Shown in pieces: positions 14,912 to 38,874 of a stretch of 41,750 bases of DNA; positions within the stretch are counted from its first letter, which is position 1, and each line of letters starts with the position of its first letter. The stretch covers positions 1-41,750 of IMG/VR virus record IMGVR_UViG_3300034374_009450; one strand, 5' to 3'. The position numbers and the translations under genes are program-made. Below the pieces are notes generated by a model. The model had not been told where the DNA came from. It saw only the letters and a list, made by a program, of their open reading frames with translations, and did no database searches. The stretch comes from a virus.

Positions 14912-14931
14912 GTAGTAAAAAGTATGAAAAC

Positions 14932-14958
14932 GGAGGGTGAAATTCCCTCCATTTATTT
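14932..14958 (+). terminator. Intrinsic terminator
   Basis: GGAGGG (14932-14937) pairs with CCCTCC (14945-14950) over a 7-nt loop, followed by A and a T-rich run. It ends the helicase-ATPase-SSB operon and argues against starting the next gene at 14924. Confidence 0.7.
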
Positions 14959-14980
14959 TAAAACAAAAAAACAACAAAAG

Positions 14981-15760
14981 ATGTCAAAAGTAAAGATAGG
15001 AATTCCAGGATGGTCAACAGGACCACAAAGTTATGGAGTATCTAAAACTTATTTAGAATATATTTCTACATTCGGTATACCGGTAATTTTAACTCCTGAA
15101 ATTGAAGTAGGAGATGTAGAAATCGATATGCTGTTCTTGTCTGGAGGGCCTGATTTAAATCCTGGTCTTTATGGACAAAAGCCGAGCTATTTTAATGGGA
15201 CTGGAGATCTATTTAGACAATGGTTCTATATTAGCAGATTACAACAGTATATTGAGTCTGGTATACCTATTATGGGTATATGCCTAGGTATGCAAATGTT
15301 AGCTGCTCATTTTGGTTCCAGGATAACTCAACATTTGGGAAATCATCCTGATTCAAAAAATAGATGGGAAAAAGGCCATCAAGTGTATGTACCTGTATAT
15401 ACATATGGAGAGGAATTAGTGTATCCGCAGAATTTTGGTATGGATGTTAATTCACATCATCATCAAGGAGTTATGCTTAACGATTTATCTACAGATTTAT
15501 TGGCTACGCAAATATTTATTCACAACAGACAAAACCGTGAAATACCTCAATCAGAGGCTGTAGTAGAAGCATTTATACACAATAATTTACCTATCTTTGG
15601 AGTACAGTGGCATCCAGAAGAATTTTATGATGAATATACAACCAGTATGGTAGAGTTATTTATCGATAATATTCAAAATGAAAATGGAAATTTCAACAAA
15701 GCAAACGCATCCCCCAGAGAACCTTTCCAAAGAATTGTTCAAGAGGCACAGCTTGTATGA
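14981..15760 (+). CDS. Class I glutamine amidotransferase / C26 peptidase
   Basis: A 259-residue protein of the gamma-glutamyl hydrolase/PuuD-like C26 group. It has LSGGPDLNP (residues 53-61), a nucleophile elbow with C101 in GICLG, a NSHHHQG segment (157-163) and GVQWHPEE with H211 and E213 completing the Cys-His-Glu triad. The group cleaves gamma-glutamyl amides or releases ammonia from glutamine for a ligase. ATG 14981 is chosen because an upstream ATG (14924) lies before the terminator hairpin. The C-terminal tail overlaps the primase fragment by 83 bases. Confidence 0.85.
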   Translation: MSKVKIGIPGWSTGPQSYGVSKTYLEYISTFGIPVILTPEIEVGDVEIDMLFLSGGPDLNPGLYGQKPSYFNGTGDLFRQWFYISRLQQYIESGIPIMGICLGMQMLAAHFGSRITQHLGNHPDSKNRWEKGHQVYVPVYTYGEELVYPQNFGMDVNSHHHQGVMLNDLSTDLLATQIFIHNRQNREIPQSEAVVEAFIHNNLPIFGVQWHPEEFYDEYTTSMVELFIDNIQNENGNFNKANASPREPFQRIVQEAQLV

Positions 15761-16022
15761 TGTAGACATTTTTAATTTTTATTACGGTTCATTTCAACCG
15801 CGAAAGATGTATAAAAGTCCTTTTAGAAAGGATAAAATACCTTCTTTCAATATATATCCTTCAGAGAACGGCTATGATCTTTTTTATAAAGATTTTGGCC
15901 ACTCCTCTGGAGATAGTATAGTTTTTGTTTCTAATCTGTATAGTATTTCTTATACAGAAGCGTTACAAAAAATATATAATGATTTAATTTTAACACATCC
16001 GTTAACTAAACTAGCGGCATAA
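15678..16022 (+). CDS. Primase N-terminal (zinc-binding-fold) half
   Basis: A 114-residue protein matching only the N-terminal domain of phage DnaG-type primases: YYGSF, KSPFRKDKIPSFNIY and a DLFYKDFG...GDSIVFV segment. The zinc-ligand cysteines of bacterial DnaG are absent, as in several phage relatives. The RNA-polymerase/Toprim part is missing here but appears 2.4 kb downstream (18388-19041). ATG 15684 is an alternative start. It overlaps the upstream amidotransferase gene by 83 bases. It would contribute to template recognition or initiation if the two halves associate. Confidence 0.8.
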   Translation: MKMEISTKQTHPPENLSKELFKRHSLYDVDIFNFYYGSFQPRKMYKSPFRKDKIPSFNIYPSENGYDLFYKDFGHSSGDSIVFVSNLYSISYTEALQKIYNDLILTHPLTKLAA

Positions 16023-16062
16023 TATAGTAATATATTATGAAAAAACTCAGAATAATTTAATT

Positions 16063-16596
16063 ATGTTTACTATTATTAAAACAAGAGAAACGAGTAATTG
16101 TAAAATGACCCTTATCGATAATGCGATTGGGGCTTTTGGTAACGGTGGTCGTAATATCTTAAACGAAATTGAGCATATCTACGAAGACATCAGAATAACT
16201 GGTTTTTTTCATGTAAGTTCTGCTTATGTAAAAGATGTTATTTTTAAGTATTTTCCAGTTATCTATTGTAATGAAGTGCATATAGGTTATGGCCCTGTTC
16301 CACAATATCATATTTTGGTAGCTAATATAAATAGATTAGATTCAATATATATTAAAAAACATTTAAGGCGTCAGGAATTTTTAAATGATGTAAATAAAGT
16401 AAAGCGAGATTTAAATGCTTTAAAGAGAAAAAATCTTAAAAAGCCTGTTAATATGATATGTACATTTGGTACAAATACTTTAACTTTAGGAAGAACTTAT
16501 AAAGTTACAAAAATTGTAGACACAGGAAAATTAAAAGTTAGAAACGATAATGGCAGAACTATATACGTATCACCTTTCAGATTTAAACTTAAATAA
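16063..16596 (+). CDS. Hypothetical protein with SH3-like tail
   Basis: A 177-residue basic protein. The first 120 residues form a mixed alpha/beta region. The last 45 residues (MICTFGTNTLTLGRTYKV... through YVSPFRF) resemble a small SH3-like beta barrel. It is the first of four genes lying between the two primase halves. Function unknown. Confidence 0.7.
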   Translation: MFTIIKTRETSNCKMTLIDNAIGAFGNGGRNILNEIEHIYEDIRITGFFHVSSAYVKDVIFKYFPVIYCNEVHIGYGPVPQYHILVANINRLDSIYIKKHLRRQEFLNDVNKVKRDLNALKRKNLKKPVNMICTFGTNTLTLGRTYKVTKIVDTGKLKVRNDNGRTIYVSPFRFKLK

Positions 16597-16598
16597 CT

Positions 16599-17288
16599 AT
16601 GGCAAGTACATGTAATTATAAATTAGGAAAGCTTAAATTTGTAAAAGGCTCAATCTGTTTTGCAGCAATACGTAATTTTAAGGGTACTGTGAAAATAATT
16701 GTATATTTTCAAAAGTCTCCTTTTACACCAACACAAATTAGAAAATATTTAGTCTTATTAAAAAATGTAGGATTTAATTTTACTTTCAAAACTATAGAAG
16801 ACTCTCCAGAATATAAAGATCTTTGTATAGAAATTGATTTGAAAGAAGATACTAGTGTTATGAGAACTTTATTTTGTATGTATGTAAGATGTCTTTGGGA
16901 AGGTTATGTTAAAAACCAACCTAGCACTAGAACTCCTAACTATGATGAATTTATCAAAGTAGTTGAGTTTTTATTTAAATTGAAAGAAGCTTTTCCAAAT
17001 AAGCGAAATTATATACTTCTAAATATAGCTTGTAACTTATTTATTATACAGCAGAATCCTTATAACTCTAACCATTTTCCAGCAAGGCAATTAGGATGTT
17101 ATTTATTTGACACTTTACCTAGACAACAGTTAACAGATTTAGGTAATGTTAATGATGTAATGACTATTATAGACACGGTTAAAATTAGTACTAAGGCTAA
17201 ACAGGTTATTGCAGAAGACTTTAAAAATCCTAAAACAAATAAAGACTTCTATGCTGAAATGCTGCACCTTTATAAAAAACATAATTAA
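16599..17288 (+). CDS. Hypothetical protein
   Basis: A 229-residue protein with a beta-rich first half and a helical second half. No recognised motif. It begins two bases after the previous stop, so cotranscription is likely. Confidence 0.7.
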   Translation: MASTCNYKLGKLKFVKGSICFAAIRNFKGTVKIIVYFQKSPFTPTQIRKYLVLLKNVGFNFTFKTIEDSPEYKDLCIEIDLKEDTSVMRTLFCMYVRCLWEGYVKNQPSTRTPNYDEFIKVVEFLFKLKEAFPNKRNYILLNIACNLFIIQQNPYNSNHFPARQLGCYLFDTLPRQQLTDLGNVNDVMTIIDTVKISTKAKQVIAEDFKNPKTNKDFYAEMLHLYKKHN

Positions 17289-17317
17289 TAACGGGGAAAC
17301 TCTTTAAAAATATAAAT

Positions 17318-17767
17318 ATGACTCCTTTAAAACAACAAATAATAAAAGAGCTTCATGCTTTTAATCAATTAGATAATAAAATAGTTGAGGCATTTGGAGC
17401 TAAAGAATATTGTGCTAAAAATGGTATTACATATAATATTATTGAAGACAATCCCGTGCCGTCACTTGAATCAAAAAAATTAGCTTGGAAATTTGGAAAA
17501 TTACTTTGGGATAATGAATATGCTCAAGATGTAGGAACTTTTGAAAATCCAAAACAAACAAATATGAAAGAAATATTTGATAATTTTTTGAAACAAAACG
17601 GTGTAGAGACTAACAATGGGCAACCTAAAATTTCAACTGATTTAAAAATAGCTATAATGAAACTTATGGAAAAACATGTTGATTTGAGAAATTCAGATGA
17701 ACTTAAAGATGTAGATTTATATCATAAATTTTTAGATTGGGAAAAAGAAATGTGGAAATTACTTTAG
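17318..17767 (+). CDS. Helical hypothetical protein
   Basis: A 149-residue mostly helical, soluble protein. No family recognised. It lies in the four-gene insert between the primase halves. Confidence 0.65.
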   Translation: MTPLKQQIIKELHAFNQLDNKIVEAFGAKEYCAKNGITYNIIEDNPVPSLESKKLAWKFGKLLWDNEYAQDVGTFENPKQTNMKEIFDNFLKQNGVETNNGQPKISTDLKIAIMKLMEKHVDLRNSDELKDVDLYHKFLDWEKEMWKLL

Positions 17768-17822
17768 GTTGATGAGATAGTCCGAACTGCAAATATAAAT
17801 AATAATTCAAAAATTTACAAAA

Positions 17823-18383
17823 TTGATTAATAATTTTAAACGAAAACTTACTAAACATTCAATTAAAAATGTTTGTAATGAAGCTCTGATTTCGTATTTT
17901 TATGGCCTTGGTTACCAATCTAAGCATATAGAAGCTTTCGATAAGGGTAATGGTACATATTATACTGGAGTTAGATTGTCTTATATAAAAGAATACGTAT
18001 TACCGCAATTTGATAAAGAATTTATTTTAGAAAGGTTAGATGACCTAATAAATAAAGGTGTTTTAAATACACTATATTGTGGTGATGTTAACGATGTCAT
18101 CTTTGAAAATAAGAATACCGAACATAGACAATTCTCTTTAACAAATGTTTTAGATTATAGCCGTAATCGAGAAACAGATGATATAAAATTTATAAAAGAA
18201 TACTTAACAAAGTTAGAGCAGAAAAAACTTAATAAATTGCAGAGTAAGGCAGAAATGACCTTACCTAAAAAGGAAGCCATTCAGGCAGAAAAACAAGAAG
18301 ACGTGGAAAATGTAGAAAATACAGAAAATACTCCAGGAACTGAGAGTAATATTTTTTCATTTAGTTCTCTCGATCCTTTTTAA
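17823..18383 (+). CDS. Hypothetical protein, TTG start, LDPF tail
   Basis: A 186-residue protein starting at TTG 17823 (a TAA at 17796 closes the frame). A basic N-terminal domain is followed by a charged, Glu-rich low-complexity region and a C-terminal SSLDPF. The acidic linker plus Phe-ending tip recalls SSB-type tails, but the DPF end is not canonical. It lies just before the Toprim fragment. Confidence 0.6.
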   Translation: MINNFKRKLTKHSIKNVCNEALISYFYGLGYQSKHIEAFDKGNGTYYTGVRLSYIKEYVLPQFDKEFILERLDDLINKGVLNTLYCGDVNDVIFENKNTEHRQFSLTNVLDYSRNRETDDIKFIKEYLTKLEQKKLNKLQSKAEMTLPKKEAIQAEKQEDVENVENTENTPGTESNIFSFSSLDPF

Positions 18384-18387
18384 GTAA

Positions 18388-19041
18388 CAAAATGTAAAAC
18401 GTGTTGAAGTTAAATATATTGAACCTGAAAAAAAGGAAATCAGTGTCAAAACAAACAAGACTTTTAGACCCGAAGAATTAGACTATTTTATTAGTAATGG
18501 GATAGATCCTAAAATATTAAAAAAATATAATGTATACTCATTAAATTCAGTTAAGGTAAATTACCGAACTGTATGGGTAAGGAATCCAGAACATTTTATT
18601 ATAGGTTACTATATTCCAAGGTTACAACGAATTAAATGTTATAAACCAAATACTAAAGAGTATATTTCTAATTTTAATTCGTCAATTTTATATGGCTATG
18701 AACAACTACATGAAAAAGGTAACATAGTTATTTTTACAAAATCTCCTAAAGAGGTTTTATTTTACGCGTCTAATAATATACCGGCTGTATGTCCAAATAC
18801 AGAAAACACATTATTAGAAGACTTACCTAAAGAATTTTTAATAGATTTACAAGAGAGATTTTCTCAAGTGATTGTTAATTTTGATAATGATTCTTTAGGA
18901 AAACGTTATGGTAAAATGTATGCAGAATATTTTGGAACAGAGCCGTTTTTTTTACCAGATGGCGATAAAGATATTACTGACTTTTTTAAAAATCATGGTA
19001 AAGCAGAAACAAAAACAATAATAAAAATGTTTTTAGAATGA
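18388..19041 (+). CDS. Primase Toprim half, start codon missing
   Basis: An uninterrupted frame encodes the catalytic half of a DnaG-like primase. It has an ELDYFISNGID helix, GYEQL, VIFTKSPKEVL, an acidic IVNFDNDSLG (the Toprim DxD) and DGDKDITDFF. No in-frame ATG, GTG or TTG exists until very late, inside the Toprim domain. The frame opens after TAA 18385-18387. An ATG at 18392 has the right leader but is followed directly by TAA; one extra T after that ATG would give M-L-K-R-V-E-V and join the Toprim frame. The stop overlaps the next gene's ATG. Its partner is the N-terminal half at 15678. Confidence 0.75.
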   Translation, partial: QNVKRVEVKYIEPEKKEISVKTNKTFRPEELDYFISNGIDPKILKKYNVYSLNSVKVNYRTVWVRNPEHFIIGYYIPRLQRIKCYKPNTKEYISNFNSSILYGYEQLHEKGNIVIFTKSPKEVLFYASNNIPAVCPNTENTLLEDLPKEFLIDLQERFSQVIVNFDNDSLGKRYGKMYAEYFGTEPFFLPDGDKDITDFFKNHGKAETKTIIKMFLE

Positions 19042-19493
19042 CAAAATTAATTCATACAAATAGTAGTGATATATTATATCATGTCACAAGCGCAGATTTA
19101 GAAAAGCTAGATTTTATGTTAGATTATTATGTTGATCTACATAATGACAATAACGTACCAACTATGGGAAATTATGCATTTCATTGGTGTAATACTACAG
19201 TGAAAACGCAAGAATCGAGGAGGGAACATTACATTCCATTTTCTTCTTTTTATGAAATTTCGCCTGGGTATGATACTCCCGAATATGCAGGTCACTATTC
19301 TTTTCCGGATTTAATATTTAGAGTTTTGCCAAATTTGATTTTTGGTAAGACAGAAAAAGCTAATCAACTTGCTTTAATACTTTTTCAAAAATATTACACA
19401 AATGAAAAAGATGTAAATTTAGTTGATATCTTGTATCAGCAATTTGTAAAAACGACAAATAGTAAAATAAATGAAAATATTAACCTCTACTGA
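19038..19493 (+). CDS. Hypothetical protein
   Basis: A 151-residue protein of unknown function. The ATG overlaps the Toprim stop (ATGA). It is rich in aromatic residues and His, with no motif I can name. Its end overlaps the next gene by 23 bases. Confidence 0.7.
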   Translation: MTKLIHTNSSDILYHVTSADLEKLDFMLDYYVDLHNDNNVPTMGNYAFHWCNTTVKTQESRREHYIPFSSFYEISPGYDTPEYAGHYSFPDLIFRVLPNLIFGKTEKANQLALILFQKYYTNEKDVNLVDILYQQFVKTTNSKINENINLY

Positions 19494-19812
19494 AAAAGTA
19501 AACTTTGCAAATACTTTACTTAAAACTTTGAGAACAAAATATCCTCAATATGTTTTAATAATGCAAGATAATTCTTTACTTATTAAAATTACTAAAGAGA
19601 CTGCTGAAAAAAATGGTCGTTATGTTTTTTATATAAGTGAAGAGACTTTAGTAAAAGATTTTTTAGAAAATACTTTATCAACTAAAGAATTAAAATTTTA
19701 TTACTTAACTAGTTTACATTACGCGTTAATATTTAACTCTGTTAATCCATTAAATTGGCTTAATGGAGTATTAGCGTCAGATAAACTGCTAATAGACTTA
19801 AAAATGTTATGA
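19471..19812 (+). CDS. Hypothetical protein
   Basis: A 113-residue alpha/beta protein with no recognised motif. It overlaps both its neighbours (23 and 4 bases), so it sits in a coupled operon. Confidence 0.65.
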   Translation: MKILTSTEKVNFANTLLKTLRTKYPQYVLIMQDNSLLIKITKETAEKNGRYVFYISEETLVKDFLENTLSTKELKFYYLTSLHYALIFNSVNPLNWLNGVLASDKLLIDLKML

Positions 19813-20300
19813 CAGTATCACCCAAAACAACGAATTTATTAATTTATGATTCTTTTTGTTCTACAGGATCTGACCACTTAAAGTTTTTACAAACTTTACA
19901 TGGATTTGATAACTTTAGAGATATAAGGGTTAATATTAATCCAAGATATGAGGTATTACTGTCTCCATTTTCTATGTATGTACACCAGAATATAACAGTA
20001 CCTTCTATATGTTTTAATCCTAGAGATACTAGACAAAAACCTATTAAATGTGAATGGTATGCTGTAAGTGATAGGGTGTTACACAATTTAGAAAAATTTT
20101 ACAAAGACTTTCAATTAAGTTTAGTAGAAATAGATATTAATAAATTCACTTACCTTAATTCTAGATTTAGTTTAGCTGGAGAACCGTCTAAATTTGCAAT
20201 ATTCTTAAATCTTGAAGATTTAGATGATGCAGAATTAGAATATTATGGGTTTTTACAATTAATATCTGGAGATTTTAATAACTTACAAAATAAACTTTAA
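19809..20300 (+). CDS. Hypothetical protein
   Basis: A 163-residue soluble protein with no recognised domain. It overlaps the previous stop by four bases and is followed one base later by the ATP-grasp gene, which hints at a link to the amide-bond pathway, though nothing in the sequence shows it. Confidence 0.65.
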   Translation: MTVSPKTTNLLIYDSFCSTGSDHLKFLQTLHGFDNFRDIRVNINPRYEVLLSPFSMYVHQNITVPSICFNPRDTRQKPIKCEWYAVSDRVLHNLEKFYKDFQLSLVEIDINKFTYLNSRFSLAGEPSKFAIFLNLEDLDDAELEYYGFLQLISGDFNNLQNKL

Positions 20301-20301
20301 T

Positions 20302-21183
20302 ATGGCAACTATAATCAAAAATTCTCAACCTAGAAATATTAGAAGGGCAAGGCCGGTAAGACCTGCACGTCCTGTTCTAGTAAATCGAAATAATAGGGGT
20401 AGATATTTTTTAAGCCTTAGGTCTAGACATCCTTCACATAGACCCTTACGTAGATCTGTTAGGGTCCCTGTAAGAACAGTTCTAAATCTAGGCTCTACTA
20501 CACGTCCTAGAGAAGGTTATCTAGTTTTAAATAGCGAAGAAGCAGTAAGAAATAGTGCTAGTAAAGTACGTATGAAAAATTGCTTTGCTAGAAACAATGT
20601 TAGTACAGCTAACTATATACATTCTGCAGACATTAACGAAGTTCGTGATTGGGTAAGGAATAACCTTCCTGTAGTATCTAAATCTGAATTTGGTAGTCGT
20701 GGTAGAGGAAATAAAAAGCATAATACTATTGAAGAGTTTAATGCTTGGGTACAGAATAAAAATTTACGAAACTATATTTTTGAAAACTATAAAAACTTTA
20801 ATAGAGAATATAGACTTCATGTAACTCCTTTGGGATGTTTTTATTCTTGTAGAAAGATGATTAGGCGAGAAACTCCTGAAAACCAACGTTGGTTTAGGAA
20901 TGATAATAATTGTGTTTGGATACTACCAGAAAATCCACAATTTGAAAGGCCTGTAAATTGGCACGAAATTGAGCAAGGATGTGTTCAAGCATTATTAGCT
21001 GTAGGATTAGATGTAGGAGCCTGCGATGTCAGAGTTCAATCTGCAGTAGATGCTGACGGTAACAGACGTCGAAGATGTGACTTTGCCATTATTGAAATCA
21101 ATTCAGCACCATCTTTCGGTCAAATCACTTTAGAGAAATACAGGGAAATGCTTCCTGAATTAGTAAATCATAAATTACAATAA
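20302..21183 (+). CDS. ATP-grasp ligase with basic N-terminal tail
   Basis: A 293-residue protein with an ATP-grasp fold from about residue 70: a Gly-rich nucleotide loop (SEFGSRGRGN, 128-137), EYRLHV (169-174), CRKMIR (183-188), DVGACDVRV (237-245) and the Mg-binding IIEINSAPSFG (263-273). ATP-grasp enzymes activate a carboxylate as acyl-phosphate and join it to an amine. The first ~60 residues are an Arg/Pro-rich low-complexity tail (RRARPVRPARPV and similar) not usual for the fold; it could bind nucleic acid or act as a peptide substrate. It is followed immediately by the class II amidotransferase and then an amidoligase. Confidence 0.85.
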   Translation: MATIIKNSQPRNIRRARPVRPARPVLVNRNNRGRYFLSLRSRHPSHRPLRRSVRVPVRTVLNLGSTTRPREGYLVLNSEEAVRNSASKVRMKNCFARNNVSTANYIHSADINEVRDWVRNNLPVVSKSEFGSRGRGNKKHNTIEEFNAWVQNKNLRNYIFENYKNFNREYRLHVTPLGCFYSCRKMIRRETPENQRWFRNDNNCVWILPENPQFERPVNWHEIEQGCVQALLAVGLDVGACDVRVQSAVDADGNRRRRCDFAIIEINSAPSFGQITLEKYREMLPELVNHKLQ

Positions 21184-21185
21184 AA

Positions 21186-22934
21186 ATGTGTGGAATCTTT
21201 GGATCAATAGGGCCTAATGACCCTAATATTTATAAATTGCATATCTTAGGCATGGATAACGAAGTTAGAGGGAGAGATAGTTGTGGGTTGTATTGGAACG
21301 GCGTTGTATTACGAAGTTCTGCTATAAGAGAACGTGAATATACTGATTATATCAGTACTTACCGGCTTAAAGATTGGAATGGTAAAAACAAAATAAATTT
21401 TGGACACGTAAGAAACTCCAGCGTAGGAATTATAAGCGATGAAAATGCTCATCCGGTTACAATTTACAGTGAAGCTAAAAAGGTTAGACCTACTTTAATA
21501 GGTGCGCATAATGGAACTATTTATAACATAGACGAATTAGCTAAAAAATACAAAGTTAATGTAGAAGACTATGAAACAGATAGCCAAAAAATATTTGCTA
21601 TTTTAGCAGAAAAACATTTTGATGTTTTAAAAGAATATCAAGGTAGTGCTACTTTAGTATTTATGTATCCGCAAAAAGATCCTAATCTGTTATATATATG
21701 GAAGGGTAAAAGTAAAAAATCAGCCTCTTCTGTACAATCTTTAGAAGAAAGACCTTTGTATATGTATATAGAAGGTAGTACAGGCCAGCATTATTTCTCG
21801 TCTAGAGAAGAGGGATTAAATATTATTAATCACGATATTGACGGTAAGATTATTGATCTGCCTTGTAATCAACTTTTAATATATTCTACAGATAAAGGGC
21901 TTATAGACCAGAAAGAATATGATAGAACTGAACAAAGTCAAAGTAAGACTTATGACTATCATACTAGAGGAGCTAATAGCTATTTTAGAAATGGAAATGA
22001 AAATTTTACTAATGGGGTAGGTACTAGAAAAACTACCACTACTTACTCCAGAAATACGTCTTCTTCTAATACGTTTATTAATTCCAGTAATCTTAAGTTT
22101 GAAAATCTTATAGATACTTTAAAAGAAATGTTAGATAATAAAGATTTCCTTAAAAAGGAGAAAAATATTTCATTTGATATTTCTAAAGAACCTAAACGAA
22201 TAGGATTACCTTATACTCAAATTGTATTTTATAAGGGTAAATATTACGTTGGAGAAAGACTGATAGGTGATAATAATTTGATTGCTAATCCGGAACGTAT
22301 ACATATTGATATGGAAACTAATGACCGTGTTTATGCTAAAGATTTATTAGATGGAGAATCAGTAAAACAATTTGTCGTTTATGAAGGTATTATATTTAAA
22401 GACGAATCAAGTTATGCTGCATGTATACAAGCTCTAAGAAAAAGCTTGACTGGAATTACAATGTCTCCTACGACTAATCTTCTAGAAGAGTTCTCTTTAA
22501 GTTTTGTTAAATCTACGCATACAAATATTTATATGCAAGGAGGTACAATTTGTCATGGATTCTATTCTCCTTTATTTAGCGATAGGACTTATGTTATGCA
22601 TAGTGGTTATCTTATTGCTGTATTAGATAAAGCTAAAACTTTAGATGAAGATGATAGCGCGTTAATTTGCTGTAGTCAAGAGATGTATAACATATTAGAT
22701 CCAGAAGATTCTAATACTTATGCTGATGTAGAACTAGGTAATCAATTACCATTACTATCTGATGAATATTTAAATACTTTATCTGAACAGAATAAAAAAA
22801 CTAAAATTGACATGTCTACCTCATTAAAAGAGGCAAAAGGTCAAATTAGTAAATTAGTACAAGATGATGAAGAAACTTTTCAAGAGCATAAGACAGCTAT
22901 AGATCAAATTATAACTGTTTTAGAACAAGTTTAG
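21186..22934 (+). CDS. Class II (Ntn) glutamine amidotransferase, long form
   Basis: A 582-residue protein. After Met removal, Cys2 (MCGIFG) would be the N-terminal nucleophile. RGRDSCG (28-34), GHVRNSS (73-79), HP (89-90), HNGT (108-111) and the ETDSQ segment (130-134) fit the GATase II domain, which releases ammonia from glutamine. The synthetase or isomerase domain usual in GlmS or AsnB is absent; instead about 350 residues of unknown sequence follow, with a Ser/Thr/Asn-rich linker around 245-300. It lies between the ATP-grasp ligase and the amidoligase, either of which could accept its ammonia. Confidence 0.85.
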   Translation: MCGIFGSIGPNDPNIYKLHILGMDNEVRGRDSCGLYWNGVVLRSSAIREREYTDYISTYRLKDWNGKNKINFGHVRNSSVGIISDENAHPVTIYSEAKKVRPTLIGAHNGTIYNIDELAKKYKVNVEDYETDSQKIFAILAEKHFDVLKEYQGSATLVFMYPQKDPNLLYIWKGKSKKSASSVQSLEERPLYMYIEGSTGQHYFSSREEGLNIINHDIDGKIIDLPCNQLLIYSTDKGLIDQKEYDRTEQSQSKTYDYHTRGANSYFRNGNENFTNGVGTRKTTTTYSRNTSSSNTFINSSNLKFENLIDTLKEMLDNKDFLKKEKNISFDISKEPKRIGLPYTQIVFYKGKYYVGERLIGDNNLIANPERIHIDMETNDRVYAKDLLDGESVKQFVVYEGIIFKDESSYAACIQALRKSLTGITMSPTTNLLEEFSLSFVKSTHTNIYMQGGTICHGFYSPLFSDRTYVMHSGYLIAVLDKAKTLDEDDSALICCSQEMYNILDPEDSNTYADVELGNQLPLLSDEYLNTLSEQNKKTKIDMSTSLKEAKGQISKLVQDDEETFQEHKTAIDQIITVLEQV

Positions 22935-22943
22935 TAATTAAAA

Positions 22944-25187
22944 ATGAAGTTAATACAAAAAATGAAAAAAGTATTTATAAAAACTTTTGACGGGATGGAG
23001 ATATTAAAAAGTAAAGCTAGGAAAATTGGCGAATCTTTTTACATTCCTAATAGAAGTTGTTTTAAAATAGGAAATCGTTGGTATCCTATAAATTCTCCCA
23101 GCATTGCATTAAATGTGGAGACTAATCAATATGATTTAAAATCCAATTTGCAAGGAGCTGTAATAGACTTTGATAAAGATATGTACCCAATTTTCGGGTA
23201 CATATCTAAACGAGTCTTTGCTGATGAATATATTCAATTTTACGGAAAAATCAAGAAAAAGAAAGGAGATGATAAGGTTGACGCTATAGCACAAGTTTAT
23301 TTAGCTAGTATGGACTTAGTTAAAAAATATAATCTTTATTTAGATAAAGATAATTTAGTGTATATGTTTGACAAATGTTCTACAGCTAAATCTAACAAAA
23401 AGTATAATTACAGATTTTTACAAGGCGAAAGGATTAGAAATTATACTTGGGATGGTTCTAAGATTACTAGGCGTGTTATAGAACGTTATGAAGAGGCTAA
23501 TTTTCCTATTCAACCAGGATATTATAAATTAGCTAAAGTTTTAGGAAACCTGTCTTTTGGATTAGAGTTTGAAACTATTTATGGAACTATACCTTCTTGG
23601 GAATTGTTTGATTTAGGATTAATACCGGTTAGAGACGGTTCTATATCTGGTTATGAATATACTACAATTCCTTTAAAAGGAGCTAAAGGATTACAAACTA
23701 TTGAAAATATTTGTTTAGCTTTAAATAAATATTGCGAATTTGATTTTTCCTGTTCTTTACATATTCATTTTGGAAATACTTTTAAAGATAAGATTTTTAT
23801 CACTGCTTTTTATGCTGCTGCATGTCAGTTGCAACAAGAAGTATTTGATTTAGTACCTTTCTTTAAAAGAAATCAAAGAGAATTCTTAGGATCATCTAAA
23901 GAATATTGTAAAATGCTTCCTTTACTAAATATCGGTAACTATTCTAAAGAAGATATTACTGATATCGAAAACTTTAAAGGTAAAGTACTTACTGATATGA
24001 ATATTCTTTATAAATTTTTATCAGGAGGATATGATTTAGGTAGGTATAATAATAGAGATCATCACCCAGAAGATATAGATGATAGACGTAAATGGCAAAG
24101 AGAAGCCAGGTATCATTGGGTAAATTTAATACCTTTAGTGTTTAAGAAAGATGGTACTATTGAGTTTAGGATACATCACTCTACATATAACCCAGAATTA
24201 ATTATAAACTGGTTATTTATTTGCGCAAGTATTATTAAATATGTAGAAAAGCATCCACATGATATTTTATCTAAAAGTTCTTTAATTACTTTAGAGGATA
24301 CTATAAACGTATTTGCAGCAGGAAATGCTAAAAAATCTGGATTTAGAACTGATTTAGTAAATACTTTATTGAAGCATAAAGATTTTACTATTGAAAAATT
24401 TAGACAATATTTTTTGGACAAAAAGTTTGTTCCTCATAGTGAAATAAATGCTGATTGCGAGCCTATTAAATATCCTATTTTAAAATTGGAAAATTTTTAT
24501 AAGGAGTTAGGACCAGTTAATTCTGAAAATAGCTCTCCTGCTTTTAACATTAAGCCTTCAAGAAGAAATCTTAGTTCAAATACTTCCCATTATGGAGGTT
24601 TAGATAATTATAAGTCGCTTGATCTAAAAAAAGTTGAGTGGGGCTCTGATACTTTTAGAGAGCCTACGACGTTTGAACAGTGGCTAACTTTAAAAGAAGA
24701 AAATGAAACAATTAATAGACACCCAGAATCTGCAAACGGTTCTGCCGTGTTTGGGCAGGCTGAGATTGTTAAGTCTATTACAAAAGCTTTGGGCAATGAT
24801 ATATTTTTCGAAGCTGTTGCTAATTTTCGCAACTCTAAGATACAGAATGAGTTTTTCCCTCATACCGTTTCTGCAGCGATTAAAGGAATACTTCTTGAGC
24901 ATCAGGAAGGGTCTCCGGCACGATTAGGATTTCTAGCCAAACTTATAATTGTAGAACTTATAAATCCTACGCAGTCCCAAGCTGTAATGAATCAATTAAT
25001 TGACATAGCGTTAAATGAACCTGAGTTTCAGGATACTTTTAATGGTGTGATAAAACAACTTGAAGAATTATACAAAGAAAACGTATCAAAAAAACAATCG
25101 CCGGAAGGGTCACTCCTTAGAGAGGAGTACAGTGACAGATCTGAAGAATCTACCACAATTGCAAAAGATCCTTACCCAGACTTTTAA
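22944..25187 (+). CDS. Amidoligase-family enzyme (Amidoligase_2-like)
   Basis: A 747-residue protein of the glutamine-synthetase-like COOH-NH2 ligase superfamily. Core motifs: FGLEFET (205-211), DGSISGYEYTT (231-241), SLHIHFG (271-277) and GTIEFRIHHSTYN (404-416). The conserved Glu and His residues coordinate the metals and ATP. Residues 1-190 and 420-747 are extra; the N-terminal part is beta-rich and the C-terminal part is helical, possibly for substrate or partner binding. It lies just downstream of ATP-grasp and GATase II genes, a phage arrangement predicted to make peptide or amide modifications. The 3' end overlaps the resolvase gene by 128 bases. Confidence 0.85.
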   Translation: MKLIQKMKKVFIKTFDGMEILKSKARKIGESFYIPNRSCFKIGNRWYPINSPSIALNVETNQYDLKSNLQGAVIDFDKDMYPIFGYISKRVFADEYIQFYGKIKKKKGDDKVDAIAQVYLASMDLVKKYNLYLDKDNLVYMFDKCSTAKSNKKYNYRFLQGERIRNYTWDGSKITRRVIERYEEANFPIQPGYYKLAKVLGNLSFGLEFETIYGTIPSWELFDLGLIPVRDGSISGYEYTTIPLKGAKGLQTIENICLALNKYCEFDFSCSLHIHFGNTFKDKIFITAFYAAACQLQQEVFDLVPFFKRNQREFLGSSKEYCKMLPLLNIGNYSKEDITDIENFKGKVLTDMNILYKFLSGGYDLGRYNNRDHHPEDIDDRRKWQREARYHWVNLIPLVFKKDGTIEFRIHHSTYNPELIINWLFICASIIKYVEKHPHDILSKSSLITLEDTINVFAAGNAKKSGFRTDLVNTLLKHKDFTIEKFRQYFLDKKFVPHSEINADCEPIKYPILKLENFYKELGPVNSENSSPAFNIKPSRRNLSSNTSHYGGLDNYKSLDLKKVEWGSDTFREPTTFEQWLTLKEENETINRHPESANGSAVFGQAEIVKSITKALGNDIFFEAVANFRNSKIQNEFFPHTVSAAIKGILLEHQEGSPARLGFLAKLIIVELINPTQSQAVMNQLIDIALNEPEFQDTFNGVIKQLEELYKENVSKKQSPEGSLLREEYSDRSEESTTIAKDPYPDF

Positions 25188-25506
25188 TATTGATACAAAG
25201 TTTATCAAAACTTCTAGACAAGCTAGTAGATTATACGATGATTCTAAAATAGATATTTGGGGTGTACCTTTACTTATACAAGTAAAAAATGTTAAAAGTT
25301 CTTTGAACTACACTACTATATTTAATGAGATGGATGAATGTTTGAAACAAAACTTTCCTCCAAATCAATTAGAGCATAGTTACCCAAAAATAATTAGACA
25401 TCAAAGGCGTAGAGCCACGAGACTACAAGCTTATGAAGATTTAATCATCATGCCTTATGACGATTGGTTAAAACTAATTGCTAAGGCATACAAAATAAAT
25501 GACTAA
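25060..25506 (+). CDS. PD-(D/E)XK nuclease, Holliday-resolvase-like
   Basis: A 148-residue protein with the Hjc-type pattern: KGHSLER (E21), TSRQASRLYDDSKIDI (D65) and LIQVKN (Q74, K76), then helices. It would cleave branched DNA during replication or packaging. The proposed start is TTG 25060, inside the amidoligase 3' end; the conserved KGHSLER block lies within the overlap, so an extended overlap is probable rather than a late start. It ends next to the RecE-like exonuclease. Confidence 0.75.
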   Translation: MKNYTKKTYQKNNRRKGHSLERSTVTDLKNLPQLQKILTQTFNIDTKFIKTSRQASRLYDDSKIDIWGVPLLIQVKNVKSSLNYTTIFNEMDECLKQNFPPNQLEHSYPKIIRHQRRRATRLQAYEDLIIMPYDDWLKLIAKAYKIND

Positions 25507-26449
25507 CGAAGAATATAGAGCATTAGATTGTGTAAATCAATCTAGTCTAAAACTTCTAAGAAGGTCTCCAAAAGCGTTTAAATTTAATGTATATAATAAC
25601 GATAGTATTGCCTTTGTTGAAGGTGATGCTGTCGATACATTACTAACTAATGGCGAAGATGCTTTTCATTCTAAATTTTATGTAGGTGCTGCTGAAAAAC
25701 CAACTGGTAAAATGGCAGTATTTGTTAAAAAGCTTTTAGAATTAAATGATCTTGGCGACACCCCTAATAGTATGTTTTATCAAGAAGCATATGATGCAGG
25801 AGAGTGGAGTCCCAGGGCAGCTAGTCTTGGCGCCATTATTAAACGTTTTGAAGACAACTTTTTAGATTATTACAAAGAGCAAAAAGAAAACGAAAATAAA
25901 ATAGCACTAAGCGAAAGTGTATACAAAAATACATTTGAAATTGTGCATACAATATTATCTGATCCACATTGTTCTGTATATTTTACAGAAAATACAAAAT
26001 ATCAAGTTCCTATAGTAGGTAATCTTGAAGACGTTCCTTGTAAAGGATTGTTAGATATGGTTATTGAAACAGATAAAACTATATTACCTATAGACATCAA
26101 AACTACAGGTAAAGATATTTATGATTTTAAACGATCTTATTTACAATATGGTTATGATTTTCAAGGTAGTTTCTATACAGCATTGTTACAACAACAATAT
26201 CCTGATAAAGAAATTTTACCTTTTAAATTTATAGTGTGTGAAAAGTCCTTATTTAATCCTCCTTTAGTATTTGAAATGACTAAAGAGGAATTAGAATTTG
26301 GAAAAAATGGAAGGATACTTAACAGTTATAAGTACCGAGGTTGGAAAAACTTACTGGATGAATATAAATATAGAAATGCTACTAACAATTGGGAATATCC
26401 TATTGATTATGAAGGGTGTGAATACATATCCATTCCAGGTAGTAAATGA
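25499..26449 (+). CDS. RecE-like PD-(D/E)XK exonuclease
   Basis: A 316-residue protein with an N-terminal NQSSLKLLRRSPKAF block (residues 13-27), GDAVDTLL (42-49), KGLLDM (D186), DIKTTG (D199, K201) and QGSFYTALL (222-230). These fit the DUF3799/RecE-like family of phage recombination exonucleases, which resect one strand of double-stranded DNA. In this region it can work with the Sak4-like ATPase and the SSB-like protein in strand annealing. It overlaps the resolvase end by 8 bases and the next gene by 4. Confidence 0.8.
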   Translation: MTNEEYRALDCVNQSSLKLLRRSPKAFKFNVYNNDSIAFVEGDAVDTLLTNGEDAFHSKFYVGAAEKPTGKMAVFVKKLLELNDLGDTPNSMFYQEAYDAGEWSPRAASLGAIIKRFEDNFLDYYKEQKENENKIALSESVYKNTFEIVHTILSDPHCSVYFTENTKYQVPIVGNLEDVPCKGLLDMVIETDKTILPIDIKTTGKDIYDFKRSYLQYGYDFQGSFYTALLQQQYPDKEILPFKFIVCEKSLFNPPLVFEMTKEELEFGKNGRILNSYKYRGWKNLLDEYKYRNATNNWEYPIDYEGCEYISIPGSK

Positions 26450-26976
26450 TATTATATGATACAGTAAAAACTAGAAGTACAATGTACTTACTATATATGC
26501 TTAATATTAATCTTACAGAATTATTCAAACACGATAACTTTTTAAACTGTTATTTTGGAGATGATGGGCATCATACAGATTATCCTGATTCTCTATATGT
26601 AAGATTCTCTTACGAGCATACAGATCAATTCAGTCGATTTTTAGAAAAACAAGAGGCTAACTCTACTTTTATAACTTCCTATGATTTGCCTGAGGGTGAA
26701 ATCATGTTAGTATTTAAAATACCTCCTGAAAAATTAGATGACTACAATCATTTTAAAGCAGGACGTTATTCTAAAATAGACAAAAGATTTATTACTAGAT
26801 TTTTTCAACCTACTGATCCGAGATTTTTAATATGTTTTAAAAGAGAAACTGTTAAAAAGGATTTAGAGAAAGCTTTAGGTGTTACATTATCTGACGATGC
26901 AGAATTAGATAGTATTCCAGATTTAGAAACAGAAATTTTTAGATATAATAACGAAAAACATGAAAAAAGCATTTAG
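26446..26976 (+). CDS. Hypothetical protein
   Basis: A 176-residue protein of unknown function, rich in Asp and aromatic residues. It sits in an ATGA overlap after the exonuclease and overlaps the second class I amidotransferase by 17 bases, so all three are coupled. Confidence 0.65.
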   Translation: MILYDTVKTRSTMYLLYMLNINLTELFKHDNFLNCYFGDDGHHTDYPDSLYVRFSYEHTDQFSRFLEKQEANSTFITSYDLPEGEIMLVFKIPPEKLDDYNHFKAGRYSKIDKRFITRFFQPTDPRFLICFKRETVKKDLEKALGVTLSDDAELDSIPDLETEIFRYNNEKHEKSI

Positions 26977-27589
26977 CTTTAAACATAATTTAAGCAGTTT
27001 TATTGATGGTTTTGAAGAAGTTCAAAATCCGGAAGAGGCTGATTTAATTATTTTTCCTGGAGGAGCTGACGTTTCTCCATCTCTATACAAAGAAGATCCT
27101 CATCCATTTACTGGCTTTAGTGATAGTACTGATAAATTACATCAGTCTGTTTTTAAAGAATACGTAGGTAAAGTACCTATGTTAGGTATTTGTAGAGGTT
27201 CTCAATTTTTAAGTGTGATGAATGGTGCTAGTTTAGTACAACATATGAAACATCCTTATTGGCATTTAATGGCTACATATGATGGTAAAATATTGACAGT
27301 AAATTCTACCCACCATCAACAGATTTATTTAAGAAATTTAAATAAACAGACTTATAAATTATTAGGATTCACTCCTAATAAGATTTCTCCTATCCATGAA
27401 AATGGTAATAGTGAAGATTATCATTTTGCAGCTACTTACAGAGAACCTGAAGTAGTCTATTTTGGACAAACTAATTGTTTATGCATGCAGTATCATCCAG
27501 AATTAATGGATATTTCACAAAATAGGGAGGCTATAGAATGGAGTAATAACGTAATAAACCAATATTTATTTGAGAATGTCACAGTATAA
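26960..27589 (+). CDS. Second class I glutamine amidotransferase / C26 peptidase
   Basis: A 209-residue C26-type protein: IIFPGGADVSP (30-40), GICRGSQF with C78, VNSTHHQQ (114-121) and MQYHPEL with H179 and E181. It belongs to the same superfamily as the protein at 14981 but differs greatly in sequence and is shorter, so it is not a recent duplicate. It would hydrolyse gamma-glutamyl amides or feed ammonia to the ligase gene next to it, whose ATG (27576) overlaps its 3' end. Confidence 0.85.
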   Translation: MKKAFSFKHNLSSFIDGFEEVQNPEEADLIIFPGGADVSPSLYKEDPHPFTGFSDSTDKLHQSVFKEYVGKVPMLGICRGSQFLSVMNGASLVQHMKHPYWHLMATYDGKILTVNSTHHQQIYLRNLNKQTYKLLGFTPNKISPIHENGNSEDYHFAATYREPEVVYFGQTNCLCMQYHPELMDISQNREAIEWSNNVINQYLFENVTV

Positions 27590-28397
27590 AGTAGGAGCTG
27601 ATATAGAAGTATTTTTATGTCAGCCAAATAATGAAGAAAAGTATGTTTCAGTAGTAGGATTACTGGGAGGTACTAAAGATGAGCCTAAAAAGCTTAATAG
27701 AAAAGGATGTTTTGTGCAAGAAGATAATGTAGCAGCCGAATTTAATGTTTCTCCAACAACTGATCCTGAACATATGTGGCAGGATATTCAATATACTATT
27801 GATTATATTCAAGAGAAAACACAATATCCGGTTAAGGTTATCGCGTCAGCACAATTTCCTGAAGAAGAATTACTAACAGAACAAGCTAAAGTATTTGGGT
27901 GCGAGCCTGATATAAATGCATGGGATGAAGCTCTTATTATAGTTTCTGATGAAGTTAAAGAGAAGTATCCATTATTACGCACAACTGGAGGTCATATACA
28001 TATAGGCTATGACTTATTTGCGAAAGATAATGATGCTTGTTTTGAAGCTGTCAAACTGTTAGATTTTTATTTAGGTATACCTTCTTTATTATTAGATACT
28101 GATACTGATAGACGAATTTTATATGGTGTTGCAGGAGCTTGTAGGTTAAAACCTTATGGGTTAGAATACAGGTCTTTATCATCATTTTGGTGTTCTTCTA
28201 AAGAACTTGTTGAATGGGTATTTGAAGGAGTTGAACGTGTTATGAATGACGTTAGGGAAGGTAGGACTATTAATGATTTATTAAGAGGTACTGACATTAA
28301 TGTTGAAAATATAATTAACTCTTATGATAAAGAAACTGCACAAGCTATTGTTGAAGAGTTTGCACTAATTCCAGAAACTGTTAAAATTAACGCATGA
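27576..28397 (+). CDS. Phage COOH-NH2 ligase (phiEco32 type 2-like)
   Basis: A 273-residue amidoligase. Motifs: VGADIEVF (6-13), QEDNVAAEFN (48-57), TGGHIHIGY (138-146) and a GLEYRSLSSFW block (195-205). These match the glutamine-synthetase-like ligases seen in phiEco32-like phages. It should form an amide between a carboxylate and an amine with ATP. ATG 27576 is preferred over TTG 27570. It overlaps the class I amidotransferase upstream and is followed, with overlap, by a small hypothetical gene. Confidence 0.85.
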   Translation: MSQYKVGADIEVFLCQPNNEEKYVSVVGLLGGTKDEPKKLNRKGCFVQEDNVAAEFNVSPTTDPEHMWQDIQYTIDYIQEKTQYPVKVIASAQFPEEELLTEQAKVFGCEPDINAWDEALIIVSDEVKEKYPLLRTTGGHIHIGYDLFAKDNDACFEAVKLLDFYLGIPSLLLDTDTDRRILYGVAGACRLKPYGLEYRSLSSFWCSSKELVEWVFEGVERVMNDVREGRTINDLLRGTDINVENIINSYDKETAQAIVEEFALIPETVKINA

Positions 28398-28660
28398 AAT
28401 GTATATTAGAGAAAATAGGAGAACGTAAGTCTAATTCAAAACACATACGCTACAATAAAGTAGGTACTAAAATAGAGGGAGAATTAATTTATACCCCTCG
28501 TATAGCTACCTGTGTGGTAATCCAAAAAGAAATTAGCGAATATTTTTCTACAGATAATGTTATTAAAATTATCAAAGAAGATGACAATGTAACCACTTTT
28601 TGGACAATCCATAGTGTATGGAGACTAACATTAATTAACGTACCAAATTTGGTAAATTAA
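28394..28660 (+). CDS. Small hypothetical protein
   Basis: An 88-residue protein starting in an ATGA overlap with the ligase stop. It appears to be a small beta-rich fold. No family recognised. Its tight coupling to the ligase makes it a candidate accessory or substrate protein. Confidence 0.6.
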   Translation: MKCILEKIGERKSNSKHIRYNKVGTKIEGELIYTPRIATCVVIQKEISEYFSTDNVIKIIKEDDNVTTFWTIHSVWRLTLINVPNLVN

Positions 28661-28689
28661 ATAAATTTTTTTAACTTTAAAAATAAATA

Positions 28690-29073
28690 ATGACGAGAAA
28701 TATTGCAGTATACGGATCCTTACGTCAAAAGGAATATAATTTACAACGCTTTCAAGCAATGTTTGGAGCAGAAAATATGGTATATAAAACAACAGTTGAA
28801 GTACCTAATTTTAAATTGTATTCATTACATGGTGGAGCATATCCAGGTATTAAGAAAAGTATAGACGATTCGGACACAATTCAAGTAGATTTATTTGAAG
28901 TAGCTGAAGAAGTATATGATGCTATTAATGCTATGGAAATAGGAGCTAACTATATTCCAGAAAGGATTACAGTTGGTAACGAAACTTATACTATTTGGGT
29001 ATATAGAGGAATGATAGAACCTCAAAATTATATTAAATCCGGAGATTGGTCTACTAGAGATGAAATGGTATAG
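28690..29073 (+). CDS. Gamma-glutamylcyclotransferase-like protein
   Basis: A 127-residue AIG2/GGCT-fold protein. YGSLR (residues 8-12) is the substrate-binding loop, and the Glu in INAMEIGANY (about residue 82) sits where the family has its catalytic acid. The fold cyclises gamma-glutamyl amines to 5-oxoproline, or cleaves gamma-glutamyl-lysine isopeptides. It ends the run of amide-bond genes and overlaps the dCMP deaminase start by 14 bases. Confidence 0.8.
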   Translation: MTRNIAVYGSLRQKEYNLQRFQAMFGAENMVYKTTVEVPNFKLYSLHGGAYPGIKKSIDDSDTIQVDLFEVAEEVYDAINAMEIGANYIPERITVGNETYTIWVYRGMIEPQNYIKSGDWSTRDEMV

Positions 29074-29491
29074 TAGATTTCTAGATTTAGCAAATCTAGT
29101 TGCTTCTTGGAGTAAAGATGATCCTACGAAAGTAGGGTGTGTAATAGCTGATACAGACAACAAAATATTAAGTGTTGGATATAACGGCTTTCCTAAAGGT
29201 ATTAATGATGACGTGAAATCAAGAAAAGAACGCCCTCAAAAATATCTTTGGACAGAACACGCAGAAAGAAATGCCATCTTTACTGCAAGTAGTAAAGGCA
29301 CAAAGTTAGAAGGTAGTACAATGATAACTACTATGTTTCCTTGTGCAGATTGTGCGCGAGCAATAATAGCTTGCGGCATAAAAAATGTATATTCTCCAGC
29401 TCCTAAAGAGTTGGGGTGGGAAGAGTCACATAAAGTCTCATTAGAAATGTTCAATGAGGCTGAAGTAGCTGTGATTTTTAGTAATGATTAA
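29060..29491 (+). CDS. dCMP deaminase
   Basis: A 143-residue zinc-dependent deaminase with HAE (67-69) and PCADC (94-98), the metal site and catalytic Glu. It converts dCMP to dUMP, feeding ThyX for dTMP synthesis. It is the first gene of a nucleotide block and overlaps both neighbours. Confidence 0.92.
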   Translation: MKWYSRFLDLANLVASWSKDDPTKVGCVIADTDNKILSVGYNGFPKGINDDVKSRKERPQKYLWTEHAERNAIFTASSKGTKLEGSTMITTMFPCADCARAIIACGIKNVYSPAPKELGWEESHKVSLEMFNEAEVAVIFSND

Positions 29492-38870: not shown

Positions 38871-38874
38871 ATTA

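What the first reader, a model, noticed from the sequence alone, without database searches (positions are those of the whole stretch)
14981..29073. Seven-enzyme amide-bond pathway of unknown substrate
Within 14 kb lie two class I amidotransferase/C26 proteins, an ATP-grasp ligase, a class II amidotransferase, two distinct amidoligases and a GGCT-like protein. Iyer, Aravind and colleagues described phage amidoligase clusters as likely peptide or amide modification systems. A set this extensive points to a full write-and-erase cycle of gamma-glutamyl or similar amides on an unknown target (envelope, protein or nucleobase).
Basis: partly seen in the sequence, partly recalled or inferred. Interest (0 to 1): 0.85.

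Follow-up and report, generated by a model that had tools for sequence, protein, structure and literature searches.

The report
Known phage amide-ligase gene cassette
A crAss-like virus carries its own copy of a widespread, almost virus-only set of enzymes that join and trim glutamate-type amide bonds; the set was described before, what it modifies is still unknown, and the phage's own DNA now looks an unlikely target.

Summary
In detail: all seven enzymes are present, on one strand, with family-invariant residues intact. They are a new member of the amidoligase cassette known from phiEco32, LUZ24, tf and RIO-1, already in print as a 'peptidoglycan modification' cassette (PMC5498523, PMC11945000).

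Added here: (1) It travels as a unit. All four core genes (ATP-grasp, class II amidotransferase, two GS-fold ligases) are in 73 of 79 ligase-anchored loci; of 79 polymerase-anchored control loci, 2 have all four and 77 none. (2) It is almost absent from cellular genomes: 10 loci in a pattern-based scan of 84,980 species. (3) Of 87 complete loci, 84 have a gamma-glutamyl-removing gene, C26 or GGCT; the two often, not always, replace each other. (4) Phage Rembedalsseter carries the cassette, yet nanopore reads showed nicks and no base modification.

I read it as an amide-building pathway with removable gamma-glutamyl groups and a non-DNA target. Reactions and target are unproven. Local peculiarities: cassette in blocks, two old C26 subfamilies, split primase.

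The parts
14924..15760 (+). C26/class I GATase-fold protein no. 1, presumed gamma-glutamyl hydrolase; possible start at 14981
   Evidence: Pfam PF07722 E 1.1e-24; GICLG and HPE motifs; in a supported clade of 20 rows apart from no. 2
20302..21183 (+). RimK-like ATP-grasp ligase (core gene A)
   Evidence: PHROG 2599 2.9e-33; family profile vs RimK-type ligases 8.7e-15; K88, E169, R171, K185, D242, E265, N267 present
21186..22934 (+). Class II glutamine amidotransferase (glutaminase domain; no synthase domain recognised) with an uncharacterised C-terminal part (core gene G)
   Evidence: PF13522 1.6e-9; Cys2, R76, N109, G110, D132; family profile vs PurF 5.5e-25
22944..25187 (+). Amidoligase_2, GS-superfamily ligase (core gene D); GS-like fold at residues about 183-505
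   Evidence: PF12224 8.6e-7; AlphaFold model, 1-naphthylamine GS 8x6z Z 12.0, 234 aligned, 3.8 A
26960..27589 (+). C26 protein no. 2, presumed gamma-glutamyl hydrolase; overlaps the start of the ligase ORF
   Evidence: PF07722 4.5e-14; C78, H179, E181; family profile vs Lin1909 3fij 2.5e-27 and PuuD 6vtv 7.7e-16
27570..28397 (+). COOH-NH2 ligase type 2, GS-superfamily ligase (core gene C)
   Evidence: PF14395 2.8e-11; PHROG 3815 7.5e-67; AlphaFold pLDDT 95.8, YbdK 1r8g Z 14.3, 230 aligned, 3.9 A
28690..29073 (+). GGCT/GGACT-like cyclotransferase (gene Y)
   Evidence: PF06094 1.6e-13; Y8, G9, E83, G118; family profile vs YtfP 1xhs 1.2e-23

Best explanation
This is a copy, in a Crassvirales-like virus, of the virus-borne amidoligase cassette known from phiEco32, LUZ24, tf and RIO-1 (near certain, about 0.97). 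Inferred working: the class II amidotransferase splits glutamine and passes ammonia to its usual neighbour, the Amidoligase_2 ligase, which amidates a carboxylate; the RimK-like ATP-grasp enzyme adds glutamate to an acceptor; the COOH-NH2 ligase makes a second, gamma-glutamyl-type amide; C26 and/or GGCT then take a gamma-glutamyl group off again, as deprotection or turnover. I infer action in the cytoplasm, early in lytic infection. The target is probably not phage DNA and most likely a peptide-like host molecule (envelope or murein precursor first, protein second). Shown: gene identity, intact conserved residues, co-inheritance, GS fold of both ligases in predicted models, near absence from cellular genomes. 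Inferred: every reaction, the place, the timing and the target.
For: Co-inheritance: all four core genes in 73 of 79 C-anchored and 57 of 78 A-anchored loci (several cut short) against 2 of 79 control loci, 77 of 79 having none; no locus has core genes on mixed strands. G and D are neighbours among the core genes in 121 of 132 complete loci, as expected of an ammonia donor and its ligase. Both ligase models match the GS/GCS superfamily; the ATP-grasp gene lies nearest RimK-type alpha-glutamate ligases. Eraser rule: 84 of 87 complete loci with enough flank have C26 or GGCT; dereplicated 70 of 72, Fisher p 0.005; in CDGA-order loci 16 C26 only, 6 GGCT only, 3 both, 0 neither; neither eraser occurs in the 79 control loci. 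DNA target weakened by PMC11780129 Table 3 with the full cassette in that phage. Bacterial hosts named in the rows I saw are Gram-negative, which fits an envelope target but no more. The SU10 paper's proteomics table lists ATP-grasp ('ATP-graze'), glutamine amidotransferase and YtfP-like proteins under early gene products (PMC4281155, passage).
Against: No activity has been measured here, and none was seen in the searches run. Fold matches do not fix substrates; the top rows are tied within Z 1. The C26/GGCT exchange fails in ACGD-order loci (15 both, 3 C26 only, 1 GGCT only, 2 neither of 21) and is not significant in CAGD-order loci (7 both, 2 C26 only, 8 GGCT only, 0 neither of 17); related phages are not independent samples. 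[quoted passage not shown] Amidoligase genes are also reported in phages of Gram-positive hosts (mycobacteriophage Marvin, Clostridium prophages, a Bacillus phage; passages), untested here. No cassette protein was tested for membrane association or export.
Confidence: 0.5

Rival explanations
1. Protein tagging: the RimK-like ligase adds glutamates to a host or phage protein, the other ligases cap or extend the tag, and C26/GGCT trim it.
For: Nearest solved and curated relatives of the ATP-grasp gene include RimK-type glutamate ligases; COOH-NH2 ligase fold matches include the Pup ligase PafA (Z 12.6) and depupylase Dop (Z 12.2-13.1).
Against: RimK curated cut-off not met (30.6 vs 143.4 bits); two GS ligases and an ammonia source are more than a tag seems to need (inference); no conserved carrier peptide was found, but small ORFs were not searched exhaustively.
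Confidence: 0.25
2. Phage DNA hypermodification: amide groups are built on a nucleobase to block restriction.
For: Cassette sits among replication and nucleotide genes; Gordonclarkvirinae resist RM systems without known cause and their authors suspect a DNA modification.
Against: Rembedalsseter with the full cassette showed nicks only when native and amplified DNA were compared by nanopore, though rare or motif-free modification could escape; U17 DNA was cut by 11 of 16 enzymes; no first-step base-modifying enzyme among the window ORFs scanned (not every small ORF was scanned).
Confidence: 0.08
3. Nitrogen or amino-acid metabolism: auxiliary genes that move nitrogen through glutamate, glutamine and small gamma-glutamyl peptides to feed replication.
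For: Proposed for Phage-ZRK32, reported to promote growth of Pseudomonas stutzeri 273 with nitrate or ammonium (PMC10945688, passages).
Against: The COOH-NH2 ligase is nearly absent from cellular genomes (10 loci in 84,980 species genomes by pattern scan), so the cassette is not a copy of host nitrogen metabolism.
Confidence: 0.1
4. Chance neighbourhood of unrelated host-like genes.
For: In the window the genes are broken into blocks by RusA-like and exonuclease-like genes, and C26 no. 1 lies apart.
Against: All-or-none distribution: 2 of 79 control loci have all four, 77 none, none has one to three.
Confidence: 0.02

Closest known systems
Amidoligase ('peptidoglycan modification') cassette of Pseudoalteromonas phages PSA-HP1 and RIO-1, phiEco32, LUZ24, tf (PMC5498523, which cites Hardies 2013 and an Iyer 2002 paper; PMC10580990 and PMC11318856 cite Iyer 2009)
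   Same: Same enzyme families in the members I read: COOH-NH2 ligase type 2, Amidoligase_2, GATase II, ATP-grasp, GGCT; one strand; beside replication genes.
   Different: Window has two C26 genes, lacks the unknown f6 protein between C and D, and its core order A-G-D-C is the only one among 132 complete loci.
Crassvirales cassettes: Cellulophaga phage phi14:2 and cr108_1 (Steigviridae)
   Same: Closest named relatives of the ATP-grasp gene: 50.7% identity over 74% and 41.3% over 79% of the protein; Amidoligase_2 relatives with the same N-terminal extension that tf lacks.
   Different: There the genes are close together (Y-A-C-G-D in phi14:2; A, two unknown ORFs, P-C-G-D in cr108_1); in the window RusA- and exonuclease-like genes lie between blocks A-G-D and P-C-Y.
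Leptolyngbya phage Lbo-JY46 cassette
   Same: All six families, with three C26-like genes by profile.
   Different: Infects a cyanobacterium; follows PncB and PrsA (NAD/PRPP) genes.
Cellular gamma-glutamyl ligase/hydrolase pairs (PuuA/PuuD; gamma-glutamylanilide type; pathways recalled)
   Same: GS-fold ligase plus C26 hydrolase logic; PuuD and 1-naphthylamine GS are among the relatives found.
   Different: As recalled, those pathways lack the ATP-grasp, class II amidotransferase and second GS ligase; the window C26 genes score far below the PuuD and gamma-glutamyl-CDP-amidate hydrolase cut-offs.

Membership tests
Phage amidoligase cassette (phiEco32/RIO-1 type) | COOH-NH2 ligase type 2 gene (PF14395) | tested here: met
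   43.6 bits vs cut-off 25
Phage amidoligase cassette (phiEco32/RIO-1 type) | Amidoligase_2 gene (PF12224) | tested here: met
   29.5 vs 22 bits; GS fold
Phage amidoligase cassette (phiEco32/RIO-1 type) | Class II glutamine amidotransferase gene | tested here: met
   38.3 vs 27 bits; Cys2
Phage amidoligase cassette (phiEco32/RIO-1 type) | RimK-like ATP-grasp gene | tested here: met
   PHROG 2599 2.9e-33; 50.7% identical to phi14:2 g038 over 74% of the protein
Phage amidoligase cassette (phiEco32/RIO-1 type) | At least one gamma-glutamyl-removing gene (C26 or GGCT) | tested here: met
   two C26 and one GGACT gene
Phage amidoligase cassette (phiEco32/RIO-1 type) | Same strand, contiguous cluster | tested here: inconclusive
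   same strand; A-G-D contiguous, C about 2.4 kb further on behind RusA-like, exonuclease-like, unknown and C26 genes
Phage amidoligase cassette (phiEco32/RIO-1 type) | Unknown f6 protein between C and D (seen in CDGA and GCDA orders; not defining) | tested here: not met
   no f6 in the window; none in the ACGD/CAGD loci displayed
Phage amidoligase cassette (phiEco32/RIO-1 type) | Biochemical product (peptidoglycan or other) | not testable with these tools
   no assay; literature proposals only
RimK family alpha-L-glutamate ligase (TIGR00768) | NCBI curated cut-off 143.4 bits | tested here: not met
   30.6 bits: RimK-like, not filed as RimK
GS/GCS superfamily (COOH-NH2 ligase) | GS-type catalytic fold | tested here: met
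   predicted model; YbdK Z 14.3, 230 aligned, 3.9 A; GS, GCL, Dop and PafA in the list
PuuD / gamma-glutamyl-GABA hydrolase (NF008471) | curated cut-off 266 bits | tested here: not met
   34.9 bits for C26 no. 1; not listed for C26 no. 2
DNA hypermodification pathway | first-step base-modifying enzyme | tested here: inconclusive
   none recognised among window ORFs scanned with Pfam; not every small ORF scanned
Known anti-phage defence systems (PADLOC) | match to a PADLOC model | tested here: not met
   only ZorA at E 0.008 on residues 58-113 of D, taken as chance

The most novel reading that the evidence does not exclude
A virus-exclusive biosynthetic pathway that makes a molecule unknown in cells, built as a gamma-glutamyl-protected amide by four core enzymes and released by whichever of two unrelated deprotecting enzymes (C26 hydrolase or GGCT cyclotransferase) the phage carries; the product is a soluble or envelope-bound effector (superinfection block or counter-defence), not a DNA modification.
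Probability: 0.3. Interest if true: 0.8.

Novelty: new member of a known kind. Interest (0 to 1): 0.42.

Why it matters
The cassette is found in podoviruses of enterobacteria, Pseudomonas and Pseudoalteromonas, in crAss-like viruses and in a cyanophage, and at least its COOH-NH2 ligase occurs in a 349-kb Vibrio phage; yet, as far as the searched papers show, its chemistry is still a prediction. The all-or-none inheritance, near absence from cellular genomes and partial interchange of two gamma-glutamyl erasers give testable predictions, and the DNA-target hypothesis becomes unlikely. Cultured phages with the set on laboratory hosts (tf on P. putida, LUZ24 on P. aeruginosa, Bas88 on E. coli K-12 with restored O-antigen) make the question directly testable.

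Tried and rejected
Chance clustering was rejected by the polymerase-anchored control. The control has limits: loci reach about 10 kb either side of PolA, several are shorter, and a few come from the same contig. An RNR-anchored control failed because the single-protein query found only one near-identical contig; a Sak4 alignment was too mixed to use.

An archaeal virus with the cassette would have argued against a murein target. The candidate contig L171, in an 'archaeon' bin, looks like a bacterial jumbo phage from its ORF N-termini (PhoH-, IMPDH- and PurA-like, lipoprotein-like signal peptides; my reading, no search run). The other contig binned as archaeal, L174, is a 9-kb fragment with crAss-type gene order and was not examined further. 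Neither settles the question.

I first aligned tf_20 and KBNP1711 gp088 as C26; the alignment shows they are not. They belong to the unknown family f6 (tf_20; gp088 by profile comparison).

Fold rankings cannot tell a gamma-glutamyl ligase from an ammonia-using one. COOH-NH2 and Amidoligase_2 profiles have no credible sequence match in the PDB. No Rfam match in the window at gathering scores. The C-terminal part of the class II amidotransferase was not resolved.

Literature: Iyer 2009 and Hardies 2013 are not held; I know them only from citing papers. Papers were seen as passages (PMC4431377, PMC7824862, PMC3890496, PMC6209634, PMC5498523, PMC10580990, PMC4281155, PMC3517423, PMC10945688, PMC11318856, PMC11945000, PMC11990801) or as passages plus one named section (PMC11780129, section 3.8). 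That no activity is in print rests only on searches, of which most hits were seen as listings.
Full report
What is there. The window is a 41,750-base virus record. Invariant or nearly invariant residues of each family are intact. Around them are DnaB-like, Sak4 and SSB-like genes, primase pieces, RusA-like and exonuclease genes, dCMP deaminase, dATP/dGTP pyrophosphohydrolase, PolA, ThyX and class II RNR.

What virus. The best full-length PolA matches among phage records are crAss-like phages (cr111_1, cr108_1, crAss001; about 29-30% identity). A 99.8% identical contig that runs 6.3 kb further upstream (L178) carries a terminase (PHROG 6681, 4.3e-116); its best matches are Flavobacterium phages, and Bacteroides, Cellulophaga and crAss records are prominent in the tally. 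So it is a Crassvirales-like virus, presumably of a Bacteroidota host (inference).

It is a known cassette. Cellulophaga phage phi14:2, cr108_1, Leptolyngbya phage Lbo-JY46, Pseudomonas phages tf and Rembedalsseter and Escherichia phages KBNP1711 and Bas88 carry the four core genes plus one or both eraser families. [quoted passage not shown]

Co-inheritance. A profile search of ORFs in 166 sources gave 148 loci with at least three core hits: class II amidotransferase in 146, ATP-grasp in 145, Amidoligase_2 in 141, COOH-NH2 ligase in 139, C26 in 86, GGCT in 86, unknown family f6 in 68. By anchor: all four core genes in 73 of 79 loci found through the COOH-NH2 ligase and in 57 of 78 found through the ATP-grasp gene, several of them short fragments. 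The control, 79 loci found through PolA, has all four in 2 (L180 and L181, which look like one sequence), none in 77, and no C26 or GGCT at all; the result is the same at E 1e-4, 1e-6 and 1e-10. Even among the closest PolA relatives the cassette comes and goes: L180/L181 (60% identity) have it, L182 (58%) and L183 (60%) do not within the stretch seen. Core genes lie on one strand in every locus; the median span is 5.4 kb in 132 complete loci, and the window's order A-G-D-C occurs once. Core proteins form 114 to 127 clusters at 70% identity.

Nearly virus-exclusive. A pattern-based scan of 84,980 bacterial and archaeal species genomes with the COOH-NH2 ligase profile gave 10 loci, all titled MAG; 9 of the 10 carry at least one other core gene, the exception being the short L170. 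Diverged copies could escape the patterns, and contigs under 3 kb are not held. Bacterial hosts named in the phage rows I saw are Gram-negative: Pseudomonas, Escherichia, Vibrio, Aeromonas, Salmonella, Proteus, Cronobacter, Klebsiella, Shigella, Pseudoalteromonas, Rhizobium, Salinivibrio, Citrobacter, Pantoea, Cellulophaga, Leptolyngbya (rows seen 40 of 308, 5 of 5, 12 of 12, 60 of 315, 60 of 324). Against a strict rule, papers report amidoligase genes in mycobacteriophage Marvin, in Clostridium prophages and a similar set in a Bacillus phage (passages); I did not test those.

Enzymes. The COOH-NH2 ligase model (pLDDT 95.8) matches only the GS/GCS superfamily in the rows shown: YbdK Z 14.3, plant glutamate-cysteine ligase 13.6, GS, Dop and PafA. 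The Amidoligase_2 model is good over about residues 183-505 and poor after 510; that part matches 1-naphthylamine GS Z 12.0, a GS homologue (4hpp) 11.8 and YbdK 11.6. Ties within Z 1 forbid a substrate call. The ATP-grasp family is nearest RimK-type ligases, below the RimK cut-off. The amidotransferase has the PurF/GlmS glutaminase domain and no recognised synthase domain, and is next to Amidoligase_2 among core genes in 121 of 132 loci, which suggests an ammonia-donor pair.

Erasers. Of 87 complete loci with enough flank, 30 have C26 and GGCT, 29 C26 only, 25 GGCT only, 3 neither (Fisher p 0.0007). Dereplicated by the COOH-NH2 ligase at 70% identity: 27, 28, 15 and 2 of 72 (p 0.005). The exchange is clear in CDGA-order loci (3, 16, 6, 0 of 25; p 0.0005), not significant in CAGD-order loci (7, 2, 8, 0 of 17) and absent in ACGD-order loci (15, 3, 1, 2 of 21), so it is a tendency and not a law. 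I take it as a hint that removal of a gamma-glutamyl group is a needed step. The two C26 genes of the window fall in different parts of the C26 tree (no. 1 in a 20-row clade with support 100/99); 15 of 99 loci have two or more C26 genes. All C26 rows come from cassette-anchored loci, so the tree itself does not prove that no. 1 belongs to the pathway.

Target. DNA: Rembedalsseter has the full cassette, and comparison of native with amplified DNA by nanopore gave nicks but no base modification (PMC11780129 section 3.8); the method looks for motif-linked signal shifts, so rare modification could escape. U17 DNA was cut by 11 of 16 enzymes (PMC11945000). Against this, Gordonclarkvirinae resist RM systems for unknown reasons and their authors suspect a DNA modification; a Gamaleyavirus in the same study is also resistant without a known mechanism (PMC11990801, passages). 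Envelope: fits the hosts seen and the published proposal, with no direct evidence. Protein: fits RimK, PafA and Dop kinship. I commit to a non-DNA, peptide-like target, envelope precursor first, at about 0.5 overall.

Verdict. A correct observation of an already described cassette: a new member, in a crAss-like virus, with a rearranged order and two C26 subfamilies. The open question of its chemistry is real, and the comparative results here sharpen it.

Noticed in passing
15678-16022 and 18388-19041: The DNA primase is split: a Zn-finger half (profile positions 18-99, E 6e-25) and a TOPRIM half (127-328, E 1e-40) lie 2.4 kb and four ORFs apart; no ATG/GTG/TTG near the start of the second half. 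In 42 related loci the primase family is one ORF, median 341 aa. A contig 99.95% identical over this stretch (L087) shows the same ORFs.
   Followed up: partly
L008:10820-11452 and 67 other loci: Family f6 (about 211 aa, PHROG 4877/11055, unknown function) sits between the two GS-fold ligases in CDGA-type cassettes and may be an unrecognised cassette component.
   Followed up: partly
L005:5776-7589, L006:7858-9993, L176:6208-7970, L177:5832-8008: Two unknown proteins of about 290-405 aa lie directly upstream of the COOH-NH2 ligase in LUZ24-like and phiEco32-like phages; those tested match only PHROGs of unknown function and no credible Pfam family.
   Followed up: partly
L171:9995-13539: A jumbo-phage-like contig binned as an archaeon has the COOH-NH2 ligase next to IMPDH-like and adenylosuccinate-synthetase-like genes, reminiscent of 2-aminoadenine (Z) DNA pathways (my reading of N-termini).
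   Followed up: no
L004:1464-5673: In Leptolyngbya phage Lbo-JY46 the cassette follows PncB and PrsA genes, as in NAD salvage.
   Followed up: no
34389-41748 (minus strand): Two very large minus-strand proteins (1493 and at least 957 aa) have no PHROG match at E 0.01.
   Followed up: no
29060-30187: A nucleoside 2-deoxyribosyltransferase-like gene lies beside dATP/dGTP pyrophosphohydrolase and dCMP deaminase genes.
   Followed up: no
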